Assembly: GCF_963675165.1 (NCBI RefSeq)
Contig: NC_087384.1
Span: 5,387,182 to 5,451,181 of the forward strand
Origin: Halichondria panicea
Lineage: Eukaryota > Porifera > Demospongiae > Suberitida > Halichondriidae
DNA: 64,000 nt
Direction of reading: 5' to 3'
The first letter of the stretch is position 1; the number at the start of each line of letters is the position of its first letter. The translations under genes and the position numbers were made by a program. Shown here piece after piece: positions 143-60,629 of this stretch. Below the pieces are notes generated by a model, which saw only the letters and a program-made list of their open reading frames with translations, had not been told where the DNA came from and did not search any database.

Positions 143-469
143 TTACTTGCCTGCACAAAGTTCGCACATTTTCTTAGCAACATTTCCAACTTCGAGATCT
201 AAACAGATATCCACAAAGTCCCGATAGGTGGCGAAGGTTGTGCTCATCCATTTTTTGAGCACCAGCTCAGTTTTCTCGCAATAAGACGAATGTGTGGCAT
301 TGATGTCAGAAATGTCACCTGGATTCAAATGCATCTTAGTAGCAAACGCTGTGTAGTATTTAATATGTTTGGATATTTTTTCCAGGTGTACATCCCTACA
401 CTCTAAATTAAGTTGCCAGTCTTGTACTCCAGTCCGTTTCTTCAACCCATGAATTGTGATTTTCTCCAT
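143..469 (-). CDS. Death-domain exon, probably first exon of a gene leaving the window
   Basis: The frame from the ATG at 469 encodes 108 residues with the helical spacing of a death domain. It opens with a GLKKRTGVQDWQL segment and ends with a Trp-containing helix pair (LKKWMSTTF, then FVDICLDLEVGNVAKKM). It resembles the first exon of the intact gene at 33131-40399, which starts with a similar LKQKTGV segment and also ends after a short Cys-x-x-Cys stretch. A GTAAGC donor lies just before the stop, so the frame may splice on beyond the left edge. ATG 469 was preferred to the longer frame because the residues upstream of it are low-complexity and Tyr-rich. Death domains self-associate in apoptotic and innate-immune adaptors; no specific partner can be named. 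Confidence 0.6.
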   Translation of the reverse strand: MEKITIHGLKKRTGVQDWQLNLECRDVHLEKISKHIKYYTAFATKMHLNPGDISDINATHSSYCEKTELVLKKWMSTTFATYRDFVDICLDLEVGNVAKKMCELCAGK

Positions 470-705
470 TTTGTCAATTTGATAGACTATACTACGCAAC
501 AGTATATAGCTGCAAAGTGACAAAGCATAATTAGAATTTGAGATACCACATCTATAATAATTATAATTGCGGCTATAGCTACCATATACATAAGTGGCAT
601 ATTTATAGTATAAAATTATACTCTGCATGTGCATCAAGTTTTATCAAAAATGTCACATGACTATAATTGCGTTTATATACCATAATTATATAATTATATA
701 GCATG

Positions 706-12869: not shown

Positions 12870-14170
12870 TCTCGATTGGGTCTCTTAATTTGTTAACATA
12901 TCTGCCACCATTTCTTCGTTCTCAAGACCAGCAAGTGCTTTCTGAAATGTTTTGGGATCTTCTGCACCCGTATAAGACAGGACGATTCCTGTCTCTAGTG
13001 GAACGCCTATAAGAGGTGGTTCAGCTGGTACTGGTTCTACCTCTTCTGCTGATTCAGGAGTATACAGTCTGTGTCATCAAGTTCTACAAAATGTCTCCTG
13101 TTCTCGACTTCGACTACTTGCTGTTCGACTCGTTTTTTCTTGTTAAAGACGACATCTCGACTGTGGAACACTTTTCCCAGTTTTATATCGTACAGTACAG
13201 TTTTATATCGGTAGTTGGTGATCCAATTTCAGAGGAAGATCGTGTTGTGCACCTGTTGGCTAGTTTACCAGACTGGTATGGAATGCTAGTCACAGTACTG
13301 GAAGCTCATGAACAAGTACCCGAAATGGTTTCTTTTCCATATCCCAGAAAGCCTGCAACCAATGCATCGTTCTCACTATCTGAGCTTTCGGTCTCCAGCT
13401 CCGCATCATTGGCCTTTTCTGTTCGACCAGGTTTCTTGCCGTCTTGGTTCGAGGATCCAAGCAGGGGATAACTTCGTTTAAAATGTCCAGGCTTGCCACA
13501 ATGAAAACACACTTTCTTTGTAGATTGATATCTTGTGCCACGGTTAGCTATTAACGCATTGTCCTTTCTTCCGGCACCTATATACCACTTCCGACATGTT
13601 CTTTCATCTTTCGCTCTTCACTCAACAATCATTCAATTATACTAAGTCCATTTCGGGTACTTGTTCATGAGCTTCCAGTACTGTGACTAGCATTCCATAC
13701 GAGTCTGGTAAACTAGCCAACAGGTGCACAACACGATCTTCCTCTGAAATTGGATCACCAACTACCGAGAGTCCTTCAAAAACCTCCATCATTGTTTTGA
13801 TATGTGCCTGTACTGAGCCACCTTCATCAACTTTCAACGAATACAACCTGCGTCTCAACTCCAACTTGTTAGCCCATGATTTTTTCTGAAACTGATGACC
13901 GAGCTTCTTCCATACTGCAACCGGGTCATCTGGTTCCCCCAGCAAGCACAACAACGAGACCAAACCAAGAGCTTTATCTTTCCTGCCTGCAAACTTGTCA
14001 ATCGCGTTTTGACCTGCATCTCCAGCAGGAACCATCTACAATGCTCCATATATAGTCCGTGCTTCATCAGTGTCATCCGGCATTGCAAATTCCATGTAGG
14101 ATAATTCTATCCACAAAGCGGTACAACCGTAGACTTCGACTCAGCCATCACCACAACCGACAAACGATCA
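12870..14170 (-). mobile_element. Rearranged Ty1/copia retrotransposon remnant
   Basis: Minus-strand frames show several copia-type parts. Gag is at 13637-14150, with an upstream YPTWNLQ start region and a helical UBN2-like domain ending LLASLPDSYGM. A zinc-knuckle fragment near 13470-13512 (CFHCGKPGH) has the last Cys replaced. A pol fragment at about 12915-13200 holds a SRDVVFN phrase and then DPKTFQKALAG, the region entering reverse transcriptase. A second piece of gag lies inverted on the plus strand at about 13207-13326. Frames are broken, no LTRs are seen, and protease, integrase core and most of the polymerase are missing, so it is dead. Confidence 0.75.
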
Positions 14171-14579: not shown

Positions 14580-17500
14580 CTACTTTGAGTGTACAAACAT
14601 GTAGTCTCTGAGTTGCTTGGCCACTTCGTCCTGTTCCAGTTGGCTCTCAAACACACCAGCCAACCAGTCACCCACCGCTTGGGGCGGGGCAATCCCGACA
14701 TCCTTCAACCTCTCTTGTCCCTCGGGAGTGTTCAAGACAGAGTCACGGTCTTGGCTGAATGAGAACAGCTGCAATTCATGAGACGGCACATCACCGAGCT
14801 GCTCCTTGATCATCTGTGCATGTACATGGGGTGAGGAGCACCTCTATATACCAAAGTCATGCATGTATACTGTATATAAATCGAGTTATGGCTTATCAAT
14901 ACAATTTACCCTCACATGCATGACACAATTTTGTGCAACACCAAAACAATACTCTGCAATAGGAGGCTTGGGGGCTGCAGCTCTCCCAGTTTATTACCTT
15001 CAATATAAATTATAAGAGTCAGCGCACCTTAATTAGAGCCCCCCTATATACTTACCTATAAAGTTGCCTACAATATGCGTGTTATAATAATTATTATGGT
15101 ACACATATATAGCTAGCTTCTTCTGAACTCACTGAGCACTCTTTAGTGATTCTTTGTTTGATATAGCTGGCATCGGGGTGGGAGCCATCTTTGCCCATGT
15201 GCTCAGCGTAAAGCTTGTCAGCATAAGTGAGGCACACCAGCACAGGAACTGACTTGTCCTCCAGCATCTCAAGCCACTTCTTGGCTGACTGGGTGTGTGC
15301 TTTCCTGAAAGATGCATTATATGACTTTCACCGTACGTTTATAATCTAAATTGTGGGATCAGCTTTAATACACATTCAGCACGCCAATCGCAGTTGCAAT
15401 AGTTCTGTTGTTAGGTAATGAGTATACATGCATGTATACCGATAGCAGGTTATTTTCGTATGCGGTGGAAAATTTCTTATGCCTCAGTGCGCATGCGCAA
15501 GCGAGGTATACGGTAGTGTGTTTGTGTGTGTGGGACTTGTTGCTTGAGTGTGTATTAATTGATAGTGCTTTCAATGATAAATCTATTTAATTTGTAAATC
15601 AATAAGTAGTCCTCACATTATTTACGTCGCAGCCACTGTACTTATCCACATTTATTTTTAACCCACATGTTTAACTAATTTCTTATGAGATTGACTTCGC
15701 CTGAGTGTGTATCCGATCCAAGCCTCAAGTTAATGGGATAAATCTACAGAGCTGAGGTTTTACTTAGCTGTCTCTGTCTACAGTACAGATAGGTAGCCCT
15801 TTCCTTTTTCTTTTTTCTGTTCTTTATCACAATCGTTCAATAAGATAAAACTGTTTTAATTGTTCAATGAGATAAAATACGATAAATAATAAATAAATTA
15901 TCCACCCACGCACCAACAGTGAATACCAGGCCCACTGTTGAAGGGGCTAATCTAGTATATGGAGCAAGTGGTTTCTATGTTCTATGCTGGTTTCTATGTG
16001 TCACAAAATGGTTTTCAAGGAAACAAATTAGTTCATTACATGGCAATTTGTGCCACAAGCAGTTTATTGGCCCTTGTAGTATAGAATGACTCGGGTCTAA
16101 AGGCCCTTGACCAGAATCTACTATACCGGGCCGATAAACAGCTTGTGGCACTCATAGCCATCAGGAGTATATGATAGAGAAGAGAGTATCGAACATAGGC
16201 ATGCTGTACATCAGATGTATGCAGAGAGCAACGTGACTTCCTGTATCTGTCACAAGCTTGGAATTTGCACACTGATCAATCCAAGTGTGGGCGATTTAAT
16301 CTATTTTGTATGCAAATTCCAAGCTCTGACAGATACAGGAAATCACGTTACTCTCCGCATACATCTGATATACAGCAGGCCTACGTTCGATACTCTCTTC
16401 TCTATCATATACTCTTGTAGCCTGCCATGTAATAGTTATAGGGTATATAGCTTAGTCTCGATTGCGAGCAGCCGTCGAAGGGGGAAGGACGTCTGGTCGA
16501 ACCCGCCGCTTTTCCATGGACCTGTTTCAGAATGTTGTCGCACCAACTCAGTCAGATTTACAGATTTAAATATTTTGGGTATGGTTTTACGTAACCTGTA
16601 ATTATAAGCAGCTAGGTCAGAAGCCTATTTATTATTATACCACACTTACATCACCACAAATTGATCTCATTGGTCAACAGCTGTAGGATATATAGAATAT
16701 TAGCATACAGCCCCAGGCATGCACAGTTTTTCAAGTTGTTTTTTAGTTTTTTCATTTGTTCAAGAAAGTAAGCAAAGAGAAAAGAGCCATGCTTGACGGT
16801 ACTAAGACTCAAAGCGACGGCAGAAACACGCTCCAACAAGATGGCTAAGCTTCCATGGGTCCATGGGTGCGGTTTAGATACATTTTATCCAAGAAGAGCT
16901 TGCAACTCCAGTAAGGGACGTCGAATGGTCAACGCTTGGACCAAGGAAACTCTTGAGCATCTGTAGGAGTCAACATGTTGCTCAACTAGCTCTTTGACGG
17001 CTGCAAAATCCGGCATAGTCTTGTTCTTTTTTGCAGTCTGCATCGTGATTGAATTGTTGCTAAGGGGGAGGTCCTTTTATAGTGCTGCGGTCACGTGGTA
17101 TAAGTCAGATATGCCACACCTACTCGGAGGATATGCACCCTATAAATCCTCCGCTACCGTGGTTACATACCCCTCGGCTCCGCCTCGGAGTAACCACGGT
17201 AGCGGAGGATATATGGGTGCATATCCTCCTCTTAGGTGTGGTATATCCTATACTTAGCTAGATTACTCTGCACAAAAAGCATAACTGCTGCTGCTTTTTG
17301 TGACAGTGTTGCTGCCATAAAGCTAGGTTATAAGGAGTTCAAACCCAATCAAAAGCTTACTGTAAAAGTTTTGAAAGAATGTTGTGGAATGGTAGATCTA
17401 GAAACATGCATGTTTGTCTCCATGGGAGCAGCTCTTGAGGGAACTATGCGTCCTGTAGTAGTGATGCTTCGAGAATAATACTCTTTGCAGACTATTAAAA

Positions 17501-20500
17501 TACTGCTTTAAGTTTGTTCAATTTAATATATGACGTGTTCTGACATTAATCAATTATAGTGACTTGTTATGACAACAATAATAATAATATTCATACACAT
17601 ATCACATTCCTGAATATCACGGAAAAGCGGCGGGTTCGACTTCGACGGCTGCTCGTGAGACTAAGGGTAACTTACTTTCTAGCTAGCTAGCTGTCACAGA
17701 GACATCCGGTTACTGAGTGCAGACTCAAATGACTGCCCTATAAGGCGAATTCTCGAATGTACGTGCATGTATAGAGCTCTGCTAGTTATTGACCCCATAC
17801 GCTAATAATCCAGTTTCTACGGTAGTTTAATATACATTGTATACGGTATATAGCAAATACATGTACGAGCAGTCAAAATACATCCTGAAATATACAGAAC
17901 TATTGCATGGTAGATCTGAAGAAAGAATGTGCTGCCATGCATTGATCATATGCAGTTATGTGTGGCAGATAATTCTATTGAGTAAAAAAACTTGCGCTTT
18001 TTGCCTTACTCAAAGAAGTCACTCGATTGAAGCAATAAATATATTCATTGCTTTTTAATAAGTGCTGACATCAGCGTTTTACATTCAAATTGCACAGGTT
18101 GCTGGTTGTCAACGTTTTTCTTGTTTTTGTTTTCTTGTCTGTTCTCTACAAAATCTTTTAGTAGCCTTCTGCAAGCTCTCCTGGTATTCTAGAGTCTTAT
18201 TTCTTTGTCTTTTAGTTCTCCTAAACTCGTCTTCAACTGGGAGAATTTTGTTGCTACGCATCCTTCTGGTTGACAAAGCAACCGCATGTTGTGCATGCAC
18301 AGATTCAACCTGCATTTTGGTTGCTAAGTAATAAATGCATTATCCCATGGATACTGATGATTATCACTCGTCCGTGCCTATAGTAACTGTCACAGACTCG
18401 TGATCATCTTCAGTATCCATAGGATAATATCATAATATCTATGTTCGCTTCGCTCGCCCTCAATGCTCAACATTCTCTTAGTATAATATTAAACTACATG
18501 CACCTGTAGTCCACTACGAAGATGACCACTTGTGCGAGGGCCAGGAGGAGCTCACACAGGTCAGGGATAGTGTCATCTCTGTCATCCACACCAGGGAAGT
18601 CGATCACGTCCATTCCATCAATCACACCCTCAAGATTGTACAGGAACGGGATTGTGGTACGCTTGACAGCTGTGGTACCTACGGGGACCTATACAAGAGA
18701 AGCAACAAACAAAAAAAGTTCATATGCCAATCAATACACACATGCAGCAAAGTAGCAAAAACAATTGACATGCATGCATGCAATTGTATATACCTCAATG
18801 TTGAAGAGGGTGCTAACAAGAAGGGACTTCCCCGAGTTGACGAGCCCCACTACACCCACAGTCGTGTACTTGGCCAGCTCCTCCCTCAGATTGTGCACCA
18901 TGAGAGCCCACTTCATCCAGCAGGCTATCAGAGAGCGGTGTGTGGGAACAACCAGAGAAAGGACGTCTTCCTTGAATAGCTTGTCCCAGTCCCGTACAAG
19001 GACTTCGAGGGGGGTTGATTCGCTGATGTTTAGCTTCTTGCAGAGCTCGATAAGTTGACGCTCGAGTGAGTAGCTAATGTAGTGAGTGTTGCAACTCACT
19101 GTCTTATCCATTCCCTGAATCAAGAACTGGAGCTTGCCAGCGTAGTTGTGATCGGCAGTGGTTGTCTTCTCAGCAAAGATGCCTCTAATGTACTCCTTGA
19201 CTTGCACCAGAAGAGATCCAGAAGGAATTGATTGAATAACTGCATTCATGTCACCTAAGGAGAGACTGAACATTGCCCATACACCAACAGCAGCAGCATT
19301 TACAAGAGCACCTAGTGCCTTAGCTGTGTTGAACTCAGACTTGACTAAAGGAACTTTGATTTGATTTTCCATGAACGCCCCCAAAAGGTATGTGCACATT
19401 TTAAGATCCTTAGAGCGAATGTCATTCACTAAATCCAACATCTTTGAGTTGTACAGCTGGGAGAGCTTTTGTCGTTGATCTTCTTCCAATTGTGTACCAC
19501 TTGAAAGACTGATTGATTGCTGTGATAGTTGTGATAGCTTTTTTCGACTAACAACAAGAATTTCTAATGGTGACTTTTCTTGAGAAGCCAAAGTCGGGTA
19601 GATCATACTGAGTTTTAAATCATTGATAGCATTTATCTGTTCATAATTTTTAGCTTTCGCTAATGCATTGTGAGACAATGCTAGCATGCTAGACAATAGC
19701 TGAGGATTAGGGTGATTCGGTAAAATGTTTTGCAACCTTTCATGTGCATCACTTTGGGTCATTTTTTCCTGATACCTGAGAGGGAGGTTTGTTGCATAGA
19801 AAACCTCCCTGTCAATGATTTCATTAACAGCGGTGGCACCAGTAGCTCGAGAGGTTTGTTTAGCATACTTCTGGTAGTGTGCACGAGCTGTTTCCTTTGT
19901 TACAGTTTTACGTGATTCGGCCTGCTTCCAGGAAAGATAGTGATCTTCATTTGAACTAAATTTTGGAGACTGACCTGGGGAAAGTGTTCGGACAGTATAA
20001 TAAGCACTTTGAGCACCTGTCGACAATAGAAGGGAAGGAGGCAGATTGAGCTGAGAAGACTCCAAAAGGCTACAACATCTGGCCATAATCTCTTGATCAT
20101 CAGATATGACAATTGTATGGAAAATGCTCTCAATCGGAACAACAGAAACTATCTGCTCCAAGAAGTTTTTGACTGTGTTAAATCGATGTGAAAACATCTT
20201 CAGCTTGGTGGCATGAGGGTGTTGTTCGAGCAGAGTGCTTAAATATGCTGTCTCAATCAGCTCCGAGGGAGTGAGTTTAGCCAGCTGCTCTTGTCGAAAA
20301 GTGAAGCGAAATACCTATAATATATACGAGAAAATTCAGTCAAAGGTTGACTTTAATGGTTGGTATGACTATTATTAGAGCCCTATTATAATAACGAGTG
20401 ATGCAAGCTAGCTGCGCTGCACTGTGCTGTGCAGGCCTCTCGCCATGTTTTGCTTCGCTCGAAAAATATCAGATATTGTTATAATTATAAGAGGTATAGT

Positions 20501-23500
20501 AGTATCAAGGGCGTATAAAAGAAGAGAGGGCATGCAACTCCTATATGAGCAGAGTTCAAACGTGGGCGGATGAATGTGCATGACAGCGCATGAAATGCTA
20601 AAAATAGAAATTTCTATTTTTAGCACTTTATGCAAATGCACACATTCCTCCGCCCACGTTTGAACTCTGCTAGCTACGTGTACTGATAGAGTGGAGTTGC
20701 ATGCCCTCTCTTCTTTTATACGCCCTTGGTAGTATAATGTTATGTTATAATAACAATGAACCCACACATATGCAGTCATTATATAGAGCCAGCCGGGCTT
20801 GGAAGCATGTACAAATCTATATCTGATATAGCGATAAATGATCTCTTCTAGGATAGATTGCATTTCCTGTCAATGAATAATTAAAAAAGGGATGGATCAT
20901 CTGTAATGAGGCCAGAGTTCACAAAGGCTGCTTCTGGCAATGCAGCATGCAGCTTTCCAGCTCTTTCCTGACTCTTGTGGCTAACAAACCGCTGCTAACC
21001 CATGAGTTGAATGGAATGTTTGTGTAAACAGATGATGCTATAAAAAGATTCTGAAGAGACTGCATACAACGTACAGCCTTCACTGTGAGTCAAACTAACC
21101 ATAACTCGAGAAAGAAGCTTTAGGCCACTGCAACTTTGACTTTAGTTTCCCGTCCAGCTCCCTTATGCTCAGTAAGCTCACCTCATCATGGATTTGTCAA
21201 TTATTCCTATCGACCTTTCTACCTTGGACAGTACTGCATTACGTAATGCCAAAAAAGCCACATGGGCCGCTAACAAGGACTAAAAATTAAACGTTTATTT
21301 GTCGAAATTTTGTAATTAAATAATTTATATCATAGTAATGGATAATGTAATAGACAGCTTGTGTCCTCAAAAATTTCCTAACAGGAAACTAAAGTCAAAG
21401 TTTCAGTGGCCTATATAGTTTGGCAATGCACATCCATGCAAGGGAGCATGGCTTTCGTCGCATTGCAACCATTGAGCACATAATTATAGTTACAGCTGGA
21501 ACAGACACACAACATGCAGTCAGTATATCCTTACCTACGCCTTGAGGCATAATTATATCAGTCTTAGAACCGGTAGTGTGCTCGCCATGCATGTTTTACT
21601 TTCACTCTAGAGTGTTATAGAAGAGGTAATTATGCAATTGTCAATGAGTTATAGAAGAGGAGCAAACAGAATATCTGATGGCTTGATAATGAATGACAGA
21701 GAATAGATCTGCAATGTATTACGTATTTGCATTTCCTGTCCATGAATAATGAATAATTAAAAAAGGGGTGGATCTGTAATGAGGTCAAAGTTCACAAGGG
21801 CTGCTGGCAGTGTACATGCACGCTGCATGTAGTCTCGCGAGGGGGGAGGACATCTAGTCGAACCCGCTGCTTTTCCATGGCCCTGTTTCGGAATGCTGTC
21901 GCACCAATCAGATTGCCAGAATCAGAAGCCTAGAAGCTAGATTACTCTGCACAAAAACGTCAGCTGCTGCTATTTGTGACAGTGTTACTGCCTTAAAGCT
22001 AGGTTATAAAGAGCTCAAACCCAATCAAAAGCTTACTGTAAAGGTTTTGTGAAAGATTTTGTGAAAGAATGTTGTGCCGGGAATGGTATATAGAGTAGAA
22101 ACGTGTTTATCTGGGAGCAGCTCTTGAGGGAACTATGCGTACTCTTTGCAGACTTCAAATACTGTGCTTTTCTAAGTTTAAGTTTGTTCAATATTTAATA
22201 TGACGTGTTCTGACAATACTTGACATTAATCAATTATAGTGACTTGTTATGACAACAATAATAATGATATTCATACACATGCCACATTCCTGAGTATCAC
22301 GGAAAAGCGGCGGGTTTGACCAGATGTCCTTCCCCCTTTGGCGGCTGCTCGTGATACTATGCTGCATGCTATCGCAGCTTTGGAGCTTTTTTCTGACTCT
22401 TAATTGTAGCTATAACAAACAGTGTTATAAGCGCTCTAGTGCAAAGCCATGCATATGATGCATGTTGAATAGAAAGTTTGTGGGAACAGATGATGCTATA
22501 TGAAAGAATCTGAAGAGACTGCAACAGCCTTCACTGTGAGTCAAACTATATAGCCATAACTAGAGAAAGAAGCTTTAGTTTGAAAATCAACGAAACAAAA
22601 AATCCAAGAGAAGAGAGAAGGTGACAAGAAGCCCAGTTAGTTTTCGTCGCATTGCAACCGTTGAGCAGTTACCAGCTGGAAGACATACACATGCACAGTT
22701 GGCTTTACCGTATCCCTCGTGTGGCTATGCCTTAAGGCATAAAGATGTGTTGATACAGCTAATCTAAAATTATATAATTGCACATCGTGCTGGTAAAGAA
22801 CCTACTTTTACTGATACAGGTAGAACCTCGGCTTGGCAATTTTCTTTTAAAATGGGCATGGCCCTTAAATGCGCATGCACATTGAAGCTGTTACCGTACC
22901 CTCGCGAAAATAAGCCCATCTTGAATAAACGCCCATCCCCTCTTTTGCTTCAATTAAAGTTCTTGCACGAGGGTATTTTCACTCGATTATAAGCCCACCC
23001 AGAATGAAGAGTTTGAGCATGCGCAGTAGCTAAATGCCACATGTTTACTAGGGAAAAAGCAAGTTTTAGGTAGTAGCTAGTAAGACTATACTCCTTGCTG
23101 GACCAAGATCAGACATATAACTTTCTCTGTATATGGATCTGTTTGCCCTTGAAGATGTATATGCAGGGAAAAGAAAACACAAAGTCCAAGAAAGTTATCA
23201 CACAGGCCAATTTTGCAGGTTTAATACCTTGCCTTGGTTTTCTGAAACAAATTACCTGATAGCTGCTCTGTAGAAGTATGACCTACCATCCTTTGGGAAG
23301 TTTTTGCTACATCTGACATCAACACAAGTGACAAGCAACGAATAGAGTCAGAGTCCACTTACTTCATGTTCATTCTCTTGTGCTTTAATCATACTCATGC
23401 ATTAGTTTATATAGTTGTCAATGAAATGTTCATACTAAAATGAAAATACATAAAGAATTGTCATAGAGCCAAGTGTAAACCTCGATTTGAGGCCGCGGGT

Positions 23501-26500
23501 GGGCGTATATTCGAATAAAAACTCGCCGTTCGCGATTAAACGCCCAGTCCCCTAATAAGCCTAAACTTCTTGTAGAAAAGGGTGGGCGTATTTTCGCGAG
23601 GGTACGGTATATATATATACTATGGAGACAGGCCTGCATGCTTATCACAAATGTATAAAATATGCAACAAACCTTTCGTGAGACTTGTACTTTTATGACT
23701 TTCACTGGATTGGAGAAATGACTAGAAACGGCTACTTTCACATGATCAGCATCCATGGCGATCTTTGTATCATTTTCAGCATCATAGTTAAACTGTAGTG
23801 AATGCTGACTGGTATCTTTGGCACAGACCTTTGTCTTATATTGAGCAACTTGAATGTGGTAACAGAACCACAGGTTGTTGCCATTCACTGTCACGGAAAC
23901 CTCCCTACCGTGGCGGCGAAAATCAACAGATGTGATGGATGGTTTTACAACATTCAGATCCTGGAGTGACGAACCAGGCCTAGGTGGTTGCTTGATATAA
24001 CTCCTGAAGATAGCTTGCTGGTACACTTTGGCATCATGCTGAAGTGATCAATAAGCACATTGCATGCATGCATGGAGGTAATTTACACAAGTTTTTTTTA
24101 CCTTTGAGAACATCTCAAATGATAGCTGATCAATGGATGAAAGCGAAGCAAACTCATGTAATGCAGCCAATTCTTGACTTTCAAGAGTCTTGAACATTAA
24201 TCCGTTTAAAGGATCGATCGAAACTGAGTGCACATCTCCTATTGTTATCAACTTAGGTAGACGGGCCAGTAACTGTGGAATAGCTTTGCCCAGTACAGAC
24301 TTAATGGAAGCAAGTGCGTCCAGTGCATCCAAATCGGTACCCTATATATGATTATGTATATATATATACAGTACCAGGGTTTTATCTATAGGATTAAAGA
24401 TTTGGGCGGGGGTAAATACGCCGCAAAATGTTTGAACACGCCCTTATTACATGCTAGTGCATCATAGTAGATATAGTTACGTATATGCACATCATAGACA
24501 GGACTAATGTGATGATGTCATTATTCTACAAATTTGGGAGGGGAGATTCACCCCTGCCCCCCATTACCTGACTACATTAGCAAAAATACATGCACCAAAC
24601 CTTGTAGTTGCCACTGTCCTGGAGGATACCAAAGTTGCGCGTTAAAACAGAGGTAAATAGTCCTTGGAAACTCTGTAAGAAGGTGCGACCTTTGTGTGTT
24701 TAGGAACTAGAGCATGTACGTACATGTATACCTCCAGTGATTTCCAAAGACTGGGGAGCAACACCTCAGAACCCACCTCCTCACAACGGGGGTCCAAAAA
24801 CATGCATAAGTTGGGGATGGGGTCAGAGTCCAACATAATTGAATGGACAGTGCTCCCAAACTGAGGGGTTTCCTCCATTGCAATGGTAACCACAGAGAGG
24901 GTGATCATCGGGGCACCAAGTGTGATGCAAGCAACATTTTCTTGCAAGGCTTCCACACTGAGGAGTGGCTCTCTCCACATCCTAGCAGCTACTGCTTTGG
25001 CCAGCAGTCCCCCAAATGTGAATCCTGATATAATTGCTATCATTAATACAATGATCCAGAAAATTGGTGTGGTGCATGTCCATGCAGTGTTTCTCTCACA
25101 CGTTAAAGAACACCAGTAGCTAATCAAATTTGGGAATCTGTATACAAGTATATGTATAGTATTGTGTGTACAGTGCTAATTTAATTTGGGGGGCTATACA
25201 TCTATTGTTGTCATGTACTGTGCCACTGCATGTGTTTGAGGACGTTGAGAAGCTGTGTGTGTGCCAAATAATGGCAAGAAAATTAGTAGTAATAAAGTAA
25301 CCTCTTTCCCCAAACAAAAATCTGGCCACACCGTTTGACTTTACATGGGAAAAAACAATAACATGCATGCAGCATTCATCGGTACTTACCTGTGAAAACA
25401 ATACGATATCCATCATGCAGTTGACGGACAAAGAATCTCAATGGAATCCTTTCACTTTCAATCTTAATTCCTGTATAGTAAATATTGAAAATACCGTAGA
25501 AACTAGATTATTAGCGCTTACTCGACTATAAGCGTATCTTTATTTTAAGCGCATGCTCAACTGCAGGTTTTTGTACTCGAATTGAAGCGCTTTTCCAATT
25601 ATGCCAAGGATGATTAATTTTGTAAAAATTTAGAGCTAATTTGTTTATTTATATGAGCTAGCTAGCTTGTACAGGCATGGTAGCTATATAGCTGATGATA
25701 TATCCATCTGGAAGGACTCTCTGGGCATGCTGTTACCTTGTCTAATCATGCTGAGAGAATGTAAGACATGGATGAGGTCCTTTTATTTCAAGTTCCTAGT
25801 CATTATGAATGTTTTAATAAAAATTAGAACACACCTAGCCAAGATTAAGTGTTTTAATCTGCCGTCCGCCTCGTGCATTACGTTAACCTCGAGGCCATCT
25901 GAGTGCACCTGCATTAAACACGTGACTTGGCTAGGTGTGTTCTAAAGGATTTAGTGCTGTCACGTGAGCTCTAGCCTCGTGGCAGCTACATTTTAAATCA
26001 GTTGCTGGTGGCTATAGCTATAGCTAGCTAGACGTAATAGCAAGTTTAAGGATCCAGTAACTGATGCAAAGGAGAAAGAGATACGATTTAAAGCTATCTG
26101 GACTGACTGGGCATGTTCTCGACTGATTTCTCCTGCTGACCAACAGTCCCACTACTGGACATGCCTCCATCAGGTGATCTGGCTTACTGGATGGGAAAAT
26201 TTGTGCGTAAACTAAATGGCAATGAGTATCTGGTTTGCTCTTTTGGAACGCTATGATATTTGAAGCACCTTTGATGAAATGATTACATGAATCTGGCTTA
26301 GGTACGTCTTCAAAGCAAGCTGAGCCTATGCTATGGTCAAGTCAGCAATTCGGTACACTATACTACACATGAAACAAGTCGAGACATAACATTCAACTTT
26401 CTAATACTTTTCAGCTTTGCTTGTGTACATATTAAATCTGCTTGTATTATATGATGACATTCAGATTTCCTACTCAGCTTTGCTTTGGTGTACACATTCA

Positions 26501-29500
26501 ATCTGCTTGTATTATGCAATTGTTAAAAAATAGGCATTAATAACTTAAAGCACATGCACTTAAGTGTGGATTAATCCATGGTCATGTGACTCCTTTTAGC
26601 CAAGTTGATTGGCTGGAGATCATATGACAGCACTAAATGATGTAAATGAACTGTATATATATAAAATAAATTGTAACATAATAGTAGATCCAGTTAGGGT
26701 TGCCTGCTTGCTCACTTTCTACAGCTTACGAGTCAGCTCTATAGGCCCTGGCAAATTATGCCGGCATAATTTGGAGCATAATAGATTAGGTCCATAATTG
26801 AGGCATAATACGGTTAATATTTTGAATTTGGTCAATTCGGTACAAATAGGACGGTCCTCTGCTGCTGCTGAATTTGTTTTTTCTCTTTTAAATGACTCTT
26901 TTACATCTAGAAGATTATGTTGAATGTTCAGTTATGTTACAAATGTACAATACAACAAGTAAGAGATAATTTTTTGCTACTATAAAAAGAACGGCACTAA
27001 TAGGTTCTTTTGACAAGCATAATAGGCTGAATTTGGGGCACTGCTCAAAAGACAGAAAAAAAAGAGAATAATTTGCCAGGGCCTAGTCAGACTCAGCTCT
27101 CATCACAGAGACATCCGGTTACTGGGTGGGGCTCGAAAATGACTGCATTAAAGGCGCATTCTCGAATATAAGCGTATAGAGCTCTGCTATTGACCCCACG
27201 AGCGCATGCGCTAATAATCCAGTATACTATATTGTGCACATAATTAAAAAATTATACCATGTGTATACCAGGGGGGTAGAGCGTCTTACTACGCATATGC
27301 AAATCATGCCTATATATGCTGACATTATTCATTGTACTTAAGAATATTCACTATTTACTAGATCAACCACATTATTAGCCACACATGCAACACATGCATA
27401 TATGTGGCTAATAATACATTTGATCTACAGTGGTTTTCCATACCTTTGCAGGCTATACTCCAAGAGCACTGCAACCACAATGTAGTGATTACCTGTCTGT
27501 GTTATTTTAGTACACCCACACATCACAAAAATCAATGATGGGTAAAATACTGGCTATTGCAGACTTTTCACACAACTCAAGGGGTTACTACTCTACTTTC
27601 ATGGCACTCCTTCTATAAAAAAATGCTTGAGGTCAACAAGCTGCTTTCCAATTTTGAGCCTAGTAAATACAGGCCCTCCGCTCCCTATAGCTATACATAC
27701 AAGTTTTAGCTCATATCATTTTGCCACAATGAACCAAGCAACAAGTTAGCTGAGCTACCATCAGAGCTACCATCACTTCAGTCAGATAAAATATGAGACA
27801 CCTGGAACATTTAGCGGCTATTATAATTATTTGGTGAGTGAGCTATTAAAATTTGGCGATTTTTAATTTGACATCTTAGGCTACTACAGCAATTAGGTCC
27901 ACTAATTTGGCAGTTTTGAAATTGCCAAATTAAAACCAGTTACAGTTTGCATTTTGCAGGCCATAGCAAGTAATCTTGTTGGCTTGTTACTAACAATCAT
28001 AACAGAAGCCAACCAAAATACTATATTTACTACATTGTGGTTGCAGTGCTCTTGCAGTATAGCCTGCAAAGGTAAGGAAAACCACTGTAGTAAAATAATA
28101 GGATCATGTGCTAAGTGCTCTGTATACATGTGCAGAACACTTAGCACATTACAAACAAGGAAATGTGGTATATATAGACGATATTGAACCAGCAATACTA
28201 TATATAAGCATAGTAAGACGCTCCATCCCCTCATGTGCTCCTGATATACTATATATACCTTGCTCAAAAGAGGAGAATTTCTTCATCCAGTCTGAGAGTA
28301 AAGACTCGCTCCTAAAAGCAACATAGAACACCTTCCCCTGTCTAGCGATGAGGTAGCGATCGACATCCTCTCTGTCTTGTGATCGAGACAGTGACACTTC
28401 TTCGAGGGAGTGCTCAGGAAACTTTTTGTTGAAGAAATCTTTGTAGTCGGAAATAGTACTAGTGCTAGTAGCTAGGCTACACAGACAAGCATGATAGACA
28501 ATGTCTTTACTAAAGAGTGACGGCATATGTTCTTTAGTGGGGATTTCTTGCTCTTCGAGAGATTTCTCAGACATTTTCTCCACAGACGCAATTTTTCCCA
28601 AAGCCCATTCATAAACACTGTTGTCTACAAGCAGATCATTGCTATACACTTTAGCAAGGACTTTCCTAATGCTGTCGGGCCTGATTCGAGACTTCATTGT
28701 GTTTTTTACAAAGTCAGACAAAGCCTTCTTGTTATTTGACACATTTCGTTCCTCATCCTCTATAGAATCAATGGAGAATGATTTGATTACCTCCAGTTGT
28801 GCTCGCAATTTTTGTGAAAATGCTTCAAGAAGGTGAGAATTGTCTGCATAATTATATTCAAATCACTGCTCCAGCAATAAAGATAAATACTACGTACCTT
28901 CATCTGCAAGGTTTATGTCTTCTCTTTCTGGGTCAGCTGAATTAGATATATAAGGTGTTTATGAATTGAAATGACCATATAAATCTACTGCATGTATTGT
29001 ATCTCACATAGTATGAGGTGATCCTTTGCTATGCTAATAGCATGTGCTCTGTTATTTCCTCCAGCAGAATGCTCCACTGCTTTGATTATATTCAGCCATG
29101 TTGGCTCTCCGTACTTCTTGGTGTTGTAGCCCAAGCGTAAATACTCTGCTACTGTGTCGGCTAGACAATCCTGAACATCTCCCTTATGTGTGCTCTCCAA
29201 CTCATCCAACTTGTTACGCTTTATCCTGAGAGCTGTTCCAATAGCCTTCCATTTTGCGGCAACAGGAGAGAGAGCCTCAATTACGTCAAACATGTCATCC
29301 TCTCCTATGCATATTGCATAGAGCCACAGAGCAGTCAGTACAGTATCAGCGACAATCATATCATAGAAACCATTCATCATTGTGATTCATTCACTTACCA
29401 AGTGTTTTGCTATCCACTGCTGAAAGATCTATAGTTTCGGCTGTAGCTGCCAAAGAAGGTAAAAAAATAAATAGGGAGCTGTTCGCTAGATCAAGCTATT

Positions 29501-29520
29501 AAAGACTTACCTTCAGTCAT
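14580..29520 (-). CDS. Death domain + class-3-lipase-like + GTPase protein (DLG), 1380 aa
   Basis: Fourteen exons join in phase: 29520-29511, 29446-29399, 29304-29008, 28936-28898, 28843-28259, 25470-25390, 25024-24732, 24672-24601, 24341-24102, 24038-23673, 20314-18794, 18688-18504, 15304-15133, 14813-14580 (4143 nt in total, a multiple of three). Order of parts: short N-tail; death domain at about 24-115, ending in a PTWLNIIKAVE helix; helical linker; lipase-like domain at about 245-515 (VAFRSE strand, GFTFGG elbow at 354-359, DSDPIP at 419-424, GDVH at 509-512); probable Ig-like sandwich at 580-677; helical region; P-loop GTPase at about 1160-1380. The GTPase shows GLVNSGKS at 1167-1174, DFPG at 1214-1217 and TYAD at 1272-1275. 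The usual Ser nucleophile is Thr. Exon 2 could start 6 nt later. The join across the 3.4-kb intron 10 rests on phase alone. A role in immune or death signalling is an inference. Confidence 0.85.
16160..16425. mobile_element. Foldback element in intron 12 of DLG
   Basis: Two arms of about 110 bases are near-perfect inverted copies around a roughly 40-base loop. Both arms carry GATAGAGAAGAGAGTATCG or its complement. There is no coding content. Confidence 0.75.
16451..17665. mobile_element. TIR element with a RecQ-helicase-like fragment
   Basis: Inverted ends read CTTAGTCTCG and CGTGAGACTAAG, followed by matching AGCAGCCGTCGAAG and AAGCGGCGGGTTCGA tracts. A shorter relative lies at 21830-22359. 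The plus-strand interior (17290-17440) reads DSVAAIKLGYKEFKPNQ and then a FVSMGA phrase, similar to the start of a RecQ-type helicase domain found in some transposons; the rest of the helicase is absent. A hairpin element (17108-17247) is nested inside. Confidence 0.65.
17108..17247. mobile_element. Nested palindromic element
   Basis: Arms of about 62 bases (GGAGGATATGCACCCTATAA outward to the GATATGCCACACC end) pair around a short GC-rich loop near 17170-17192. It interrupts the larger element around it. Confidence 0.75.
18340..18428. repeat. Imperfect hairpin in intron 12 of DLG
   Basis: CCATGGATACTGATGATTATCAC pairs imperfectly with its complement about 45 bases later, 76 bases downstream of exon 12. 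Confidence 0.5.
20501..20735. mobile_element. Foldback element in intron 10 of DLG
   Basis: Arms of about 110 bases are inverted copies (CAAGGGCGTATAAAAGAAGA at the outer ends, AGCAGAGTTCAAACGTGGGC in the middle). They meet in a symmetrical AAATAGAAATTTCTATTTT centre with essentially no loop. Confidence 0.8.
21121..21413. mobile_element. TIR element of the TAGGCCACT family
   Basis: Inverted ends TAGGCCACTGCAACTTTGAC and its complement, followed by a shared TAGTTTCCCGTCC stretch. The element at 38587-38823 has the same layout (TAAGGCCACTCC and TAGTTTCCCGTC), so they are one family. Confidence 0.75.
21830..22359. mobile_element. Second copy of the element with the RecQ-like fragment
   Basis: It has the same ends and interior phrases as the element at 16451-17665 (GCTTTTCCATGG, AAGCTAGGTTATAA, AAACCCAATCAAAAGC). 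It lacks the nested hairpin and has a disrupted reading frame. Confidence 0.7.
22892..23609. mobile_element. TIR element, about 0.7 kb, in intron 10 of DLG
   Basis: Inverted ends TACCGTACCCTCGCGAAAAT and its complement, then AAGCCCA/GGGCGTA and repeated AACGCCCA phrases inside. No coding sequence is seen. It ends 64 bases from the donor of exon 10. Confidence 0.7.
25824..25945. mobile_element. Short nested TIR element, 122 bp
   Basis: Ends TTAGAACACACCTAGCCAAG and its complement bracket a short core. Confidence 0.65.
26742..27085. mobile_element. TIR element, 344 bp
   Basis: Ends TAGGCCCTGGCAAATTAT and its complement. The interior repeats a GCATAATAG phrase. The end layout resembles the hAT-like element at 4994. 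Confidence 0.7.
27426..28089. mobile_element. TIR element with about 65-bp ends, 664 bp
   Basis: The ends start TACAGTGGTTTTCC and stay inverted copies through CCTTTGCAGGCTATACT and GCACTGCAACCACAATGTAG. It sits in intron 5 of DLG, 170 bases from exon 5. A hairpin of CACATTATTAGCCAC with its complement directly precedes it (27360-27424). Confidence 0.75.
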
Positions 29521-36100: not shown

Positions 36101-39100
36101 GGAGGGGTGGTATAGTTGCAGGGTTTGCATTCAGGTACTGGTTGGGGTCCATAGCGGCAATTTTACATACTAATAGGGTATTGAAATAACGGTTGACCTT
36201 TTTTTTAGCAAGTTAATTTTCTTATTTCCCCTCTCTATTTCAAAATCCTGTATAACACCCTGAGATGCATGCTGTACACCATAATCATAACACCTAGTCC
36301 TCATCACACATTACATCACATGTATTATGTATTATGTATAATAGAGTATAGGATTCATAATGATAATACCTTTCAGTAATTGGTTGTACTGATTTATCTT
36401 CAAGGACGTAGTATTCTAGTCCACGTGTAAGTGGAGGAAGATATTGTTGGCATTGCATATCAATTTTCTTGGCAGTGATGCGAGCATTTGAAGAAGCAGC
36501 ACTTGAGAAGCTATTATTCACGGATACCTATATACACGTAACGAACATTTTTTTAGGATAGACTTATCACACGCATGACAGTATAATTATGTAAAAATTC
36601 TACACAGCAATAAAGTGCATGAATTGTATATAATTATGCATGAAGCAGTTATAATGACAATTGTGCATATAAATGTACCCTTGGATCTATCCAGTAGTAC
36701 TTCTTAGCAAGACTACTAGCTAGAGTGATCTCCTCCATTTCATACAGAGCATCGATGACATCCTTCCAGCAAGCATCAGGCTTATTCCTCAACCATTTAT
36801 CAAAAGCCGCTTGCTTTTGTTGCTCAATATCATTTGGAATATTCTTCTCTATCTTATCGTTTTCAAACTTTTCCACTCCCAAGTTAATCATAAGCAGCTG
36901 CCATGTAACGATAGAGTCGAGTTCTTTCAGCAGATCCTTCAGTAAGGGCCTTGACTTCATATGTGGCTTCTCTGCATGTGAATAATTATAATAAAAAAAG
37001 TCATTTATCCCAATTTTAAACTGCTTGGGACAGTGCAGCTTGGCCGAAATAGCGCATTTCAGAAAATAGCCGTGGCTAAAAAAACGACCCTATACTCGAA
37101 TCTAATGACTAATTTTGCGGTTCTCTCTATTAAAGTGTAATCTGTCAAACTACACCCAAAACATCATAACCGGCCGTAATAAACGTGTAAAATAAAAAAA
37201 CCTAGTTGGGCCAACCCAGTACTGTGCGCGCGGCCATGGCCAGTATATATGGAATAGCGAGTGGCTGCATTTCAGGGCGAGTTTTGTGCAGTAAACATCT
37301 AGCTAGCAATCCGTACCAAACGAAATGGCCAGTATTATCGAGGTGGCCGTACTTCAGAGAGCTGGAATAGTGAGAGTCTAGTGTAGATCTACCCTAAAAT
37401 CAAAAGTTTGACCCCGTTAATAACTCTCGCTAATCCGGCTCTATGCATGAAGTACGGTCACCTCGATACAACGGTCATTTCATTTGGATAGCTTGAACTG
37501 TACTGGACAAAACTCGCCCTGAATGCGGCCACTCACTATTCCGTACTGGTTAGCTCTGGCTACCCCAAACTATATAGGCTTTTAATATTGCATATTACGG
37601 TCAGATATATGAGGTTTTGGGTATGGTTTGGCAGATAAAATTGGACTTTCGTTAATCCGGTCACCCTTAGGCAAAATAGCGAGGTCGCTGCATTTCAGAA
37701 AATAGCCGCAGCTAAAAAGCGACCTTACTTCGAATCTAACGATAATGAATCATTATGATCATTATGCTCTCTATTTAAATTTTATCTGCAAACCCCACTA
37801 AAAACGGCCGTATTAAAATTAAAAGCCTAGTTTCGGGCAGTAGGAACTGACCAGTATACGGAATAGCGAGTAGTTGCATTTCAGTTTGTGCATGCAATAA
37901 AGATCAATTAAGCTAGCAATCCGTACCAAACGAAATGACCGATAATCGAGGTGACAATACTTTAGAGAGCCGGAGTCTATGTACTGTGTCTGGCCCTGTC
38001 TGAATTGATCGACCTATAGTACCGGAGAAAAATTAATAATGAACTCGGCATATGATACTATTATTAATGAAAGCACTGCAGGTGCTGATGTATCGGTGGA
38101 GGTGCCAAAGCTATATAACATAGCTTTATGTGACACACATTATACACACATTATAATTTATCATGATGAACATTTTTGCATTAATGCATGCAGGGCAAAA
38201 TCCAGAATCAGGGAAACTCAAAGAGTGGGTGGTAATGATCGACCATGATTGTTGTTAAAAATGATCGATGCCAAAAGTTCAAGTCTAAATTAATGACAGC
38301 AGCAGAGCCGGCTAGTCTAGTCTCGCGGACCACATTGTAACGGCTGGCTTGCGAGACTAAGCAGAGCTCTCTTCTCACTCTTGCAGCTACCAATAGCTAG
38401 TGTTCTAGTGCAGAGCTGCACTGAAAGCTTCTATCGTTTTATGGACGCTAATGACACCTACTGTATGCCTACACCAGCATCCACGCTTTCGTTGACCAGC
38501 CACTAGCAAGCAACACTCGATGAACATGTTTTTTTGCTACGGACTCTTCTCTTCAAAGAAAAAAGGCTGCAATGGCATTCTAAGTATAAGGCCACTCCAA
38601 ATGAGACTGTAGTTTCCCGTCCAACTCGCACTTCCTGCTTTAGCTACCGCATTATTTTTCTAAATATCCATTGAAATTACTTTTTTTCTTGTTCTTTGTT
38701 TACTGTTTGTGGTTGTATGTGTGTATGGTTACATTTTTGTGGGTGATAATGATAATACTGCTCACACCATATAATTTACTAGAGTCTCTGACGGGAAACT
38801 ACAGTCTCATTTGGAGTGGCCTAAAGTAAGCAAAACAACGAAGCATTATTTTGCATTAAGTCCATGACTATAGAAGCCTATAGAAATGGGTCTGTAGAAA
38901 CTCCTACTTGCACTTCATTAATCCTGTACAGCAGTCTACACACACACACACACACACACACTACGGTATATATACCTCGCATGCGCATATCGATTGTGGC
39001 CATGTCCTCAGGTTCAGTGGCCTCCTCAACCATCTTTTGATATGGTTTAAGAGAAGCTCCAGCTCCAGCTCTAATTATAGGTGCTAAATGACTAACCTGT

Positions 39101-40399
39101 ACATTCTCTTTCGAGTGATAGCTTGAGAACCCCCTTCTGCACCTGGTCACTGATCATTGCTCCTACAGCAGTAGGCACTAGCCATGTAACCAGTAGTGAG
39201 CTTTCCTGGAGGTCAAACAAAGAAAGGGCTAGCGGGGAGAGCAAACACGTTTTGGCAAGACTCTTCCTGAATGTGTCTACTTCCTCGAGAGTTGTAGTAT
39301 GAACATCACAAGCAAATTTTGCTTTTAGATGAGAGTAACCAGCAGGAGGATCTGAATTTCTCGGAAGATAGTTAAGTGTATCTCTAACAGGGGTTTTCAT
39401 TCTGAACTGTCTCATGTCTTCAGCGTAGCTGCTCATGTCTCGTTTCAGACTATCACTACCAAATTGCTCTATGATATGCTCAAGAAGACTGAAATCAATA
39501 AAGCTCAAGTAGAAATTGAGATGCACAAAGATGCTTTCGATCGACTTAGCTTCTTCAAACAAGGAATAGTTTGATAAGATAAAATCTTTGTTTTCACTTG
39601 TGATAGGGCTTGGCAAATTCATGAGTGTTCGGCGGAAATCAGTCACAGGTATTCGTTTCTCAGTTATCTCCTCGAGAGCTATCTGTCGTAGATCCCTGAA
39701 CCTCCTATCAAATTCGTTTATGTGGTCAGCAATTGTAATGCCTAATGAAATGAAATGTAAATTGATTACCATACCAAAAGTACGTTAAAAGATTACCTAT
39801 CGCCAAATTCGGTTCAACTGGGTCACGAATTGGTGGCCCTGTCAGAGGTGATTTTCTATCTATATAACAGAAACAAAAAATTAATATAAATTGCTTGATA
39901 ATAATTCATAATTATATTGAGCTACTAGATTTAACCTGGTGCAGGTGACAAGGACACAGCATCTTCTTTATTCGGCCCACTGGCTTGTGTTTGGATGACT
40001 GGAACACAAGAAATGATGAAAACACAGATTGTAGCTATTTCAAGTATAAATTAACTCACAAGTCCTACACACTTGGTCAGCCAAAGCTCCTTCACGAAGA
40101 CCAATCAAAATCTCCAACAACGACCGATAAGTGAAGTCACGGATAACATTTTCCCATTTCCTTAAAGCTTCATACATGGCCAGTTGATTTCCATTACGCT
40201 TAGAGGCAATGGTTTCCAGATCTGCTATATCGGCATTATTGAGATCAAACCCTGGCTTTCTAACAAACTTATTATAGCTGCCAAGTAAACCAGCCAGGCT
40301 CCACAATTGTTCCTGCTCAATTCTTTGGTCTAGCTGGGTGTCTGTTACTCCAGTCTTCTGCTTCAGAGTAATACAGAGCTGGCTATACCTTGTAGCCAT
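33131..40399 (-). CDS. Double death-domain protein (copy B, intact), 831 aa
   Basis: Thirteen exons join in phase: 40399-40060, 39998-39936, 39859-39797, 39741-39097, 36971-36679, 36527-36370, 36010-35939, 35831-35772, 35721-35497, 35443-35333, 35261-35142, 34822-34693, 33346-33131 (2496 nt). Parts: death domain 1 at about 25-112; Pro/Ser-rich linker to 155; helical module at 156-370, including LLEHIIEQFGSDSLKRDM near 241-258; death domain 2 at about 378-462 (LINLGV-type helix, DKWLRNKPDACWKDVIDAL); then a C-terminal region at 521-831 that I do not recognise, with RRLHVILRGSS and a Pro/Gly-rich end. Every junction follows GT-AG. Exon 5 is the conserved first homologous exon of copies A and C. 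Two death domains suggest an adaptor for assembly of signalling complexes; the C-terminal function is unknown. Confidence 0.8.
34359..34564. mobile_element. TACCGTATAGCG-family element in the last intron of copy B
   Basis: The left end TACTGTATAGCGGGAAATTT and right part ATTTCCCGCTAACTGTA are inverted. The orthologous insertion is at 44804 in copy C and, partly, at 7555-7725 in copy A, so it predates the duplication. Confidence 0.6.
37030..38000. repeat. Inverted-repeat block in intron 4 of copy B
   Basis: Several diverged copies in both orientations of phrases such as GTTAATCCGGTCACC and ATTTCAGAAAATAGCCGC. It corresponds to the blocks at 10726 and 48480. Confidence 0.5.
38587..38823. mobile_element. 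TIR element of the TAGGCCACT family
   Basis: Ends TAAGGCCACTCCAAATGAGA and its complement, followed by TAGTTTCCCGTC. It is a sister of the element at 21121. Confidence 0.75.
38936..38961. repeat. (AC)n microsatellite
   Basis: About 13 AC dinucleotides at the end of a dispersed repeat; the same position in other copies carries ACAGAC repeats. Confidence 0.8.
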
Positions 40400-41380
40400 C
40401 TTGTAATAATAATTTTTAATTGCGTTTTATTATTAGCGCGTATTAATTTAGCGATCATTACAAATTCACTAAAATGAGTACCAGTTTATAATCAATAATT
40501 ATGTGGGTTTCTGGACACGTTTTTTCCAGCTTTTACACTCTTGTAATTTTTGGACCTTAGTCGTTATGTTCTTCAAATCTCTTTCTAACCGAAACCGCAC
40601 AAAAAACTGTCAATTTTGAGAGGATGACTGTGTAGATATAATAATTTTTTAGCCAAACTACCTATAGATATTGTGACAAAGACCTTAATTAGCCAGAAAC
40701 CGTTAAGTTAGTCTTTTCTCTCCCTAACAAATTACCCAGCACTATATATAACAATTGTAATGTTTACTGTTCTGGATGCACTATATAGTTTGCAGCTTTC
40801 GCAGTGAGTGCAGTGATTTGGCCGGTAGATATTATGAGACAGGGGAGCACATGGGCCATGGGCCATGACACCATTGGTCTATAGCCATTCCGAGTTTTGT
40901 CCACATTTATTTGAACCAAACTATTTCACACCCACTTGACTGACTATTGAGGTAAATTATTTAGTTGGGCATAGCCAAACCCTGGACGCTGAGGATTCGG
41001 CTCCGCCCAACTATGTCAAGCAACTGTAACACTAGTGCATGTGGCAGATTTTCTTGCACACGAGTAACGAAACTGCAATCGCCAACGGCCTTCAACGTAA
41101 ACAAACTGTGGTCATAATTTGAGAAATAAGCTAGATTTCCAAATCCATGAGTTAAAATCCACGGAGAAGCTACACCTGCATATAGCAACTAAATATGCAT
41201 AATGGTGCATGCATGTCAGTCAGTCAGTAAATTTAGTACATGTACCGTGTTACTACCGGATCAAAATACAATAATACGGTATAGATATAGATCTATATGC
41301 ATGCACACACACAAACACGCTATAATTATCGTCTGCCTCTGGTGCACCGAGACATAATGAGATATCTACGTGGTTATAGG
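40400..41380. other. Spacer upstream of copy B, no gene seen
   Basis: Homologous to the spacers at about 11800-12780 and 49680-50800. It should contain the promoter of copy B, but no clear element can be named. Confidence 0.4.
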
Positions 41381-59689: not shown

Positions 59690-60629
59690 ACCTATACGTA
59701 TCTCTTATGTCTTACTCTATAAATTCCTTAACTGATGTCTTACTTTTAATCTAGCAACAACCTGCAGCAGTATTAAATTTTAGATGAAGTTGATAACAGT
59801 TTTTGTATTTCATTTGATAGTTCCGTTGTGAATGGCTCGTTTTGGGAGAGTAAATTTTACTAAGCCTGATTAAAAATTAATAATTAACTATAGATGTAAT
59901 ATGATAGTGGTCTCAAAAATTTCAAATGGCGTAATATTATTATAGCCATAATTATAACATAGTCACTGACTGTGTACTGCCAGCTCAAAATATTCAATAG
60001 ACAGATAAGTAGTCTATAGTCGGCTACATGTGGGGCATTCCACATCAAATAAAATTGCAGAAAATTTGCTATAGTCTTCGTGTCCATGCATATTCTATCT
60101 GTAGTTAGCCATAAATCCTGCAATCTGATTGGCTAAAGGTAGTGTTCTATCCAACTTAGAAAATCATTAAACAATCATACTTCACTTTACACAATCATGT
60201 AGTGAAGATTAGATAAATCTGATTGGCTATAGCTGGAGACTCATGGTTGCTATGATCTAGACACTGTTTAGGACATGATTTAGAAGCCCTCAGGGCTAGT
60301 AGAACCCCCACTATGTTCGGACTGCAACAAGCCCTTTGAGTTTCTAAATTATATAAATTTCTTCAACTATTATATGTTGACAGCATCTTAGATGAAGTTT
60401 AATTGATCCGCCCTTAGCAGAAAATTATATGGTGGGTTTCTGTGCTCAAATAAACTGCAAATATTACTGACAGGTGTAACAGATCAGCATTCCAGTGGAG
60501 TGTTTGAGAGTATGGGGGGTGATTCAGCACAGAAGGTGGGAAAAAGACTGTTGACAACAACACACTGCAATGTTTTTGTACACTATGCTTTGTTTTTGCC
60601 TCCGAAATTAACTATATGCACTATATAGA
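59690..60629. other. Intergenic, no gene seen
   Basis: It should contain the promoter of the membrane-protein gene. AT-rich, no clear repeat, no supported reading frame. Confidence 0.4.

What the first reader, a model, noticed from the sequence alone, without database searches (positions are those of the whole stretch)
14580..29520. A single gene joins a death domain, a lipase-like fold and a GTPase
Seen: fourteen minus-strand exons keep phase over 15 kb and give one 1380-codon frame with a death-domain pattern, class-3-lipase landmarks and P-loop GTPase motifs (GLVNSGKS, DFPG, TYAD). Known: death domains build signalling platforms; class 3 lipases hydrolyse acyl esters; plant EDS1/PAD4 are lipase-fold immune regulators; large GTPases such as GBPs and dynamins act on membranes in immunity. 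Inference: this is an immune or cell-death effector in which a death-fold platform could control a lipid-binding or lipid-acting domain with GTPase-driven assembly. I know of no named vertebrate counterpart.
Basis: partly seen in the sequence, partly recalled or inferred. Interest (0 to 1): 0.9.

Follow-up and report, generated by a model that had tools for sequence, protein, structure and literature searches.

The report
Sponge death-fold, EDS1-like lipase, GTPase gene
A sponge gene really does join a probable death domain, a lipase-like domain whose closest solved relatives are the plant immune proteins EDS1 and PAD4, and a GTPase in one protein; it belongs to an uncharacterised sponge gene family that may be an NLR-like immune or cell-death switch built from different parts.

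The parts
14580..29520 (-). Whole coding span, 14 exons, 1380 aa (residue numbers below are of this 1380-aa form)
29008..29304 (-). Exon 3: N-terminal death-fold domain, about residues 20-117
   Evidence: Pfam Death 14.9 bits, below cut-off; hhalign 86.7% to sponge Death domains; model pLDDT 43-65 per ten-residue block here
28563..28843 (-). Helical bundle, about residues 132-225, no family named; the fastest-changing part between paralogues
   Evidence: secondary structure; dN 0.17-0.29
23991..28526 (-). Class-3-lipase-like domain, about residues 238-571, exon 5 to exon 10
25017..25019 (-). Codon ACA, Thr356, at the nucleophile place of the elbow TGFTFGG; TCA (Ser) in the three C4 paralogues
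24822..24824 (-). Asp421, aligned with the class-3 lipase acid (SDPIP)
24036..24038 (-). His556, candidate triad His; the family profile's last aligned column, a His, meets His340 of rice EDS1 (alignment confidence there low)
24732..24776 (-). 15-codon optional end of exon 7, absent from NCBI isoform X2
23673..23951 (-). Beta-sandwich, IPT/TIG-like, about residues 585-677, with conserved GxxLWF
   Evidence: strands; Foldseek EBF1 IPT/TIG prob 0.98, E 0.086; no Pfam TIG hit; GxxLWF invariant in 12 of 12
18896..20314 (-). Helical middle region, about residues 678-1150, with YISYSLE stretch; no family named
   Evidence: YISYSLE invariant in 12 of 12; helices
15133..18868 (-). GTPase core, about residues 1160-1303, end of exon 11 and exons 12-13
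18824..18838 (-). G1 / P-loop NSGKS, residues 1170-1174
   Evidence: NSGK invariant in 12 of 12; place
18590..18601 (-). G3 DFPG, residues 1214-1217
   Evidence: invariant in 12 of 12; place
15217..15228 (-). G4-like TYAD, residues 1272-1275; T and D invariant, the usual Lys is H, Y or F
   Evidence: 12 of 12; place
14580..14813 (-). Exon 14: C-terminal tail and stop

Best explanation
It is a member of a sponge gene family of modular, probably cytosolic switch proteins: an N-terminal death fold (Death or CARD) for recruiting partners, a class-3-lipase-like domain of EDS1/PAD4 type that binds (and in most members could hydrolyse) a small ligand or lipid, an IPT-like sandwich and helices as a connector, and a C-terminal EngB/Era-like GTPase as the nucleotide-dependent switch. 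Most likely the GTPase state controls oligomerisation, and clustering of death folds recruits downstream death-fold proteins in immune or cell-death signalling. The copy in the window, with Thr at the nucleophile place, most likely works as a non-catalytic sensor or partner of its Ser-bearing paralogues, much as lipase activity is dispensable in plant EDS1 (recalled). Shown: one frame, lipase-like and GTPase domains, EDS1-type fold, paralogues, purifying selection. Likely: the death fold. Inferred: ligand binding, switching, partners, immune role.
For: Gene model and NCBI identity. Of 16 homologues scanned with Pfam, 15 pass MMR_HSR1, 8 pass Lipase_3 (P0002, P0003, P0004, P0005, P0009, P0012, P0014, P0016) and 7 pass both; some are predicted proteins filling most of a contig of 4-5 kb (P0003, P0009, P0012), which argues against a false join. 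N-terminal death folds: Death over cut-off in P0013, CARD just under cut-off in P0005 (23.1 against 23.9), which also has ZU5 over cut-off after the GTPase. EDS1/PAD4/SAG101 are the top PDB matches of family profiles and of P0005 and P0012 alone, and of the fold; the DAGL-like lipase of the same genome finds other lipases and no EDS1. At least eleven further copies in this genome. dN/dS between the window gene and its three C4 paralogues 0.23-0.25, lipase 0.17-0.21, GTPase 0.06-0.08. At least 148 Death matches in the genome and three Death-like ORFs in the window, one over cut-off.
Against: No expression, interaction or infection data. No single homologue passes the Pfam cut-offs for a death fold, Lipase_3 and MMR_HSR1 together: P0005 comes closest, P0013 has Death and GTPase without Lipase_3. 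Death is below cut-off here and model confidence there is low. CARD is not found by Pfam in the three C15 N-termini tested nor in P0003 and P0014. The window protein alone finds no EDS1 at E<=1, and Foldseek interleaves EDS1 chains with Rhizomucor lipase. G4 lacks the usual Lys, so nucleotide choice is uncertain. Thr here, and loss of the elbow and His in Amphimedon P0007 and P0010, show uneven constraint on the lipase part. Domain company does not prove an immune role.
Confidence: 0.45

Rival explanations
1. Active lipid-hydrolase effector: on activation the lipase domain cuts membrane or signalling lipids to kill the cell, as proposed for SesB-like or patatin domains of fungal NLRs; the window copy would be an inactive regulator or decoy.
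For: Ser nucleophile in 10 of 10 other lipase-bearing copies read in this genome; in eight aligned members Ser in 7, Asp in 7, His in 7. Fungal NLRs with SesB-like or patatin lipase domains are described in PMC4986451 (passages seen).
Against: Closest solved relatives EDS1/PAD4/SAG101 are lipase-like signalling proteins, not lipid-cutting effectors; the window copy has Thr; Amphimedon P0007 and P0010 have lost the motif while keeping the rest.
Confidence: 0.25
2. Intracellular membrane or organelle GTPase (trafficking, mitochondrial or lipid-droplet) whose death fold is only an assembly adaptor, with no part in immunity.
For: In the fold comparison IRG, EngB and eIF5B are tied and EHD, mitofusin and LeoA follow within 2 Z; P0009 passes Dynamin_N; a lipase-like domain suits lipid work.
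Against: Tandem expansion, different N-terminal domains in the C8/C4 and C15 genes, Death, CARD or ZU5 in some members resemble immune or death receptors. Membrane segments were not tested for.
Confidence: 0.2
3. Artefact: the reader joined separate genes.
For: Two introns over 3 kb.
Against: NCBI protein identical over all its residues; same order in the C4 and C15 paralogues and in homologues.
Confidence: 0.02

Closest known systems
Plant EDS1 / PAD4 / SAG101 (EDS1 family)
   Different: No EP domain seen; joined to death-fold, IPT-like and GTPase parts; an animal protein. Nonseed plants have no EDS1 family members (PMC9153377, passages seen). The window copy lacks the Ser.
Animal and fungal NLRs (NACHT/NB-ARC STAND receptors)
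   Same: General plan: N-terminal death fold or effector-like domain plus a nucleotide switch; tandem copies.
   Different: The switch is a TRAFAC-type GTPase at the C-terminus; no NACHT or LRR match.
EngB/YsxC and Era/EngA GTPases
   Same: MMR_HSR1 match; EngB (YsxC) chains head the Foldseek list (E 0.002-0.01, none at 0.001 or better); TYADK resembles the TKADK of EngB (recalled).
   Different: G4 Lys replaced by H, Y or F; part of a 1,380-aa protein.
IRG (p47) immunity GTPases
   Different: Tied within 1 Z with EngB and eIF5B; no IRG among the sequence matches at E<=0.01.
PIDD / UNC5 type ZU5-Death proteins
   Same: Homologue P0005 has ZU5 over cut-off after the GTPase, P0006 below it.
   Different: The window gene has none; a C-terminal Death domain in P0005 was seen by eye only and Pfam did not find it.

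Membership tests
Lipase_3 (PF01764) superfamily | Profile match over curated cut-off | tested here: met
   25.4 bits against 22
Lipase_3 (PF01764) superfamily | Ser nucleophile in GxSxG | tested here: not met
   Thr356 in the window gene; Ser in the 10 other lipase-bearing copies read
EDS1 family | Lipase-like domain closest to EDS1/PAD4/SAG101 | tested here: met
   For the family; control. Only solved structures were compared, and the window protein alone gave no hit
EDS1 family | C-terminal helical EP domain after the lipase-like domain | tested here: not met
   EDS1 chains align only up to about their residue 330 (353 in one chain); a beta-sandwich follows instead; no EP match in Pfam at E<=5 for the window protein or E<=1 for P0002-P0006 and P0012; that Pfam has an EP model is recalled
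Death domain (PF00531) | Profile match over curated cut-off | tested here: inconclusive
   Only Pfam match of the N-terminal fragment but 14.9 of 22.6 bits; hhalign 86.7%; no PDB hit
TRAFAC GTPase, EngB/Era type | MMR_HSR1 match, G1 and G3 intact | tested here: met
   35.1 against 21.9 bits; motifs invariant in 12 of 12
TRAFAC GTPase, EngB/Era type | G4 [NT]KxD | tested here: not met
   TYAD here; T-[HYF]-[AG]-D in the other 11 rows
Dynamin superfamily | Dynamin_N over cut-off | tested here: not met
   18.8 against 27 bits; over cut-off in one homologue, P0009, 34.3
NLR (NACHT + LRR) | NACHT or NB-ARC and LRR domains | tested here: not met
   No such Pfam match at E<=5
IPT/TIG domain | IPT beta-sandwich | tested here: inconclusive
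   Foldseek EBF1 prob 0.98, E 0.086; no Pfam TIG match

The most novel reading that the evidence does not exclude
Sponges have an EDS1-type signalling module of their own: the lipase-like pocket senses a small immune signal (for instance a TIR-made nucleotide, or a lipid), the GTPase licenses assembly, and Death or CARD domains pass the signal on. That would make an EDS1-like lipase fold a shared or twice-invented immune part in plants and animals.
Probability: 0.12. Interest if true: 0.92.

Novelty: new variant of a known kind. Interest (0 to 1): 0.62.

Why it matters
If right, it adds a GTPase-switched, lipase-bearing class beside NLRs to the death-fold signalling proteins of an early animal lineage, and puts an EDS1-like lipase domain, otherwise known as a seed-plant immune part, into an animal protein with death folds. 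Whether EDS1-type lipase domains were recruited to immunity once or twice becomes testable with these genes.

Tried and rejected
Separate genes wrongly joined: rejected by the NCBI protein and the paralogues. Decaying pseudogene: rejected by an open frame and dN/dS 0.23-0.25. Dynamin or GBP GTPase: Dynamin_N below cut-off for this protein, though see P0009. Prokaryotic or viral relatives: pattern scans confirmed none in bacterial and archaeal genomes (31 pattern matches, 0 confirmed) or viral contigs (16 and 55 matches, 0 confirmed); such scans reach only relatives that share the short patterns used. PADLOC (P0001, P0003 and P0007 scanned): LeoBC 0.0016 for P0003, a 4TM effector 0.068 for P0001, nothing for P0007. 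CARD in three C15 N-termini, P0003 and P0014: no Pfam match, though the pattern by eye is CARD-like. N-terminal profile against the PDB: one meaningless match at 0.4. Window protein alone against the PDB: only EngB at 0.16. Pfam for TIG in the sandwich and for the C-terminal Death of P0005: no match.

Literature: nine searches of the open PMC library; I saw no paper describing this architecture in the listings (in I opened only some of those listed). Passages only were seen of PMC8195603, PMC12909245, PMC9153377, PMC12345144, PMC6208332 and PMC4986451. Most subscription papers, and preprints, are not in the library.

Full report
What was claimed and whether it is there. I rebuilt them from the sequence: 4,143 nt with a stop only at the end, all 13 introns beginning GT and ending AG. 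The best database match is NCBI's LOC135340244 isoform X2 from the sponge Halichondria panicea. It is identical over its 1,365 residues; the single difference is a 15-residue gap at the end of exon 7, which fits an alternative donor. I saw no transcript data myself.

Domains. Pfam finds MMR_HSR1 at residues 1162-1271 (1.6e-8) and Lipase_3 at 345-427 (1.5e-5), both over their cut-offs; Dynamin_N is under its own. The N-terminal fragment gives Death as its only Pfam match but under the cut-off (0.029; 0.013 in the paralogue P0002). A profile of four Halichondria N-termini against a profile of two Amphimedon Death domains and two Death-like ORFs of the window aligns at 86.7% probability, P 4.4e-6; the profile is shallow (Neff 1.09) and I ran no negative control. 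AlphaFold models: in the lipase domain 16 of 19 ten-residue blocks of model residues 241-430 are at pLDDT 80 or more, later blocks lie at 59-83; the N-terminal death-fold region lies at 43-65; in the C-terminal half most of the GTPase is at 70-91 but its switch region (model residues about 525-557) is under 50.

The active site. In eight aligned members Ser is present in seven, His in seven and the Asp in seven; the window gene is the one without Ser, P0003 the one without His, P0009 the one without Asp at that column. In this genome the ten other copies whose lipase part I read all have Ser (three on C4, seven on C15); the remaining C15 copy showed only its GTPase half in the stretch fetched. 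The window gene has ACA where the three C4 copies have TCA. The Amphimedon proteins P0007 and P0010 have lost the GG of the elbow and the His, P0007 also the Ser. The lipase part of the window gene is nevertheless constrained (dN/dS 0.17-0.21 against the C4 copies; 0.18-0.20 among those copies). So loss of the nucleophile has not led to visible decay, which fits a binding or structural role.

The family. One search gave 13 homologues among the 7,989 candidates scored; six carry an organism name, all sponges (Halichondria, Amphimedon, Geodia), and seven are unnamed JGI proteins. One search gave 42 (three of them already) and one search gave 20; the only organism named in them is Geodia, of P0011 again. 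The limits of that search (length window, shared words, candidate cap) mean absence elsewhere is not shown. Of the 8 without Lipase_3, P0010 and P0013 (Amphimedon) cover the region, P0006, P0008, P0011, P0015 and P0035 begin after its core, and P0017 begins within it. N-termini vary: Death over cut-off in P0013; CARD at 23.1 against 23.9 bits in P0005, with ZU5 after the GTPase in P0005 (over cut-off) and P0006 (under it). None passes the cut-offs for all three parts at once. In Halichondria the C8 and C4 genes share the Death-like N-terminus, while C15 genes have another helical one, CARD-like by eye but without a Pfam match. Five C15 copies stand in tandem within about 42 kb. The genome has at least 148 Death matches (150 of 503 candidates scored), and three more Death-like ORFs lie in the window, one of them over cut-off.

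How it most likely works. An N-terminal death fold, a variable middle and a nucleotide switch are the plan of NLR-type receptors. Here the switch is a GTPase and the middle holds an EDS1-type lipase fold. I therefore favour a regulated assembly: ligand or partner binding at the lipase-like domain, GTPase-controlled oligomerisation, then death-fold recruitment. The steps after domain identification are inference. The rival of a true lipid-cutting effector is strong for the Ser-bearing members but weaker for this copy.

Membership and novelty. It is a class-3-lipase-fold protein with a TRAFAC-type GTPase, but not an EDS1 family member (a beta-sandwich, not the helical EP domain, follows; EDS1 definition from passages of PMC9153377), not an NLR, and not a dynamin by Pfam. 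The domains are known; the combination is, as far as nine literature searches of an open library reach, undescribed, although NCBI lists these sequences as uncharacterized proteins. I rate it a new variant of a known kind.

Noticed in passing
36649-37089 (-), 40040-40426 (-), 143-640 (-): Further Death-domain-like ORFs around the gene (4e-6, 1.1e-3, 5.2e-3; only the first over cut-off): the window lies among death-domain genes.
   Followed up: partly
39092-39784 (-): 230-aa ORF next to a Death-like ORF with no Pfam match at E<=0.1; by eye and from memory it recalls a region that follows Death domains in other sponge proteins.
   Followed up: no
13637-14035 (-): Copia-type gag fragment (Retrotran_gag_2, 1.4e-28) just downstream of the gene's last exon.
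   Followed up: no
57716-59704 (-); 62498-62977 (-); 63122-63496 (-): 662-aa ORF, multi-membrane-span by eye, no Pfam match, with what look by eye like partial near-copies at the other two places.
   Followed up: no
28563-28843: The helical segment between death fold and lipase domain has far higher dS (0.6-1.2) and dN (0.17-0.29) between paralogues than the rest: a variable region, or gene conversion elsewhere.
   Followed up: no
G000:C15:4332001-4372000 and 4552001-4602000: Tandem related genes whose N-terminal domain differs from that of the window gene: domain exchange within one family and genome.
   Followed up: partly
homologues P0005 and P0006: Extended members with a ZU5-like domain after the GTPase, recalling PIDD and UNC5.
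   Followed up: partly
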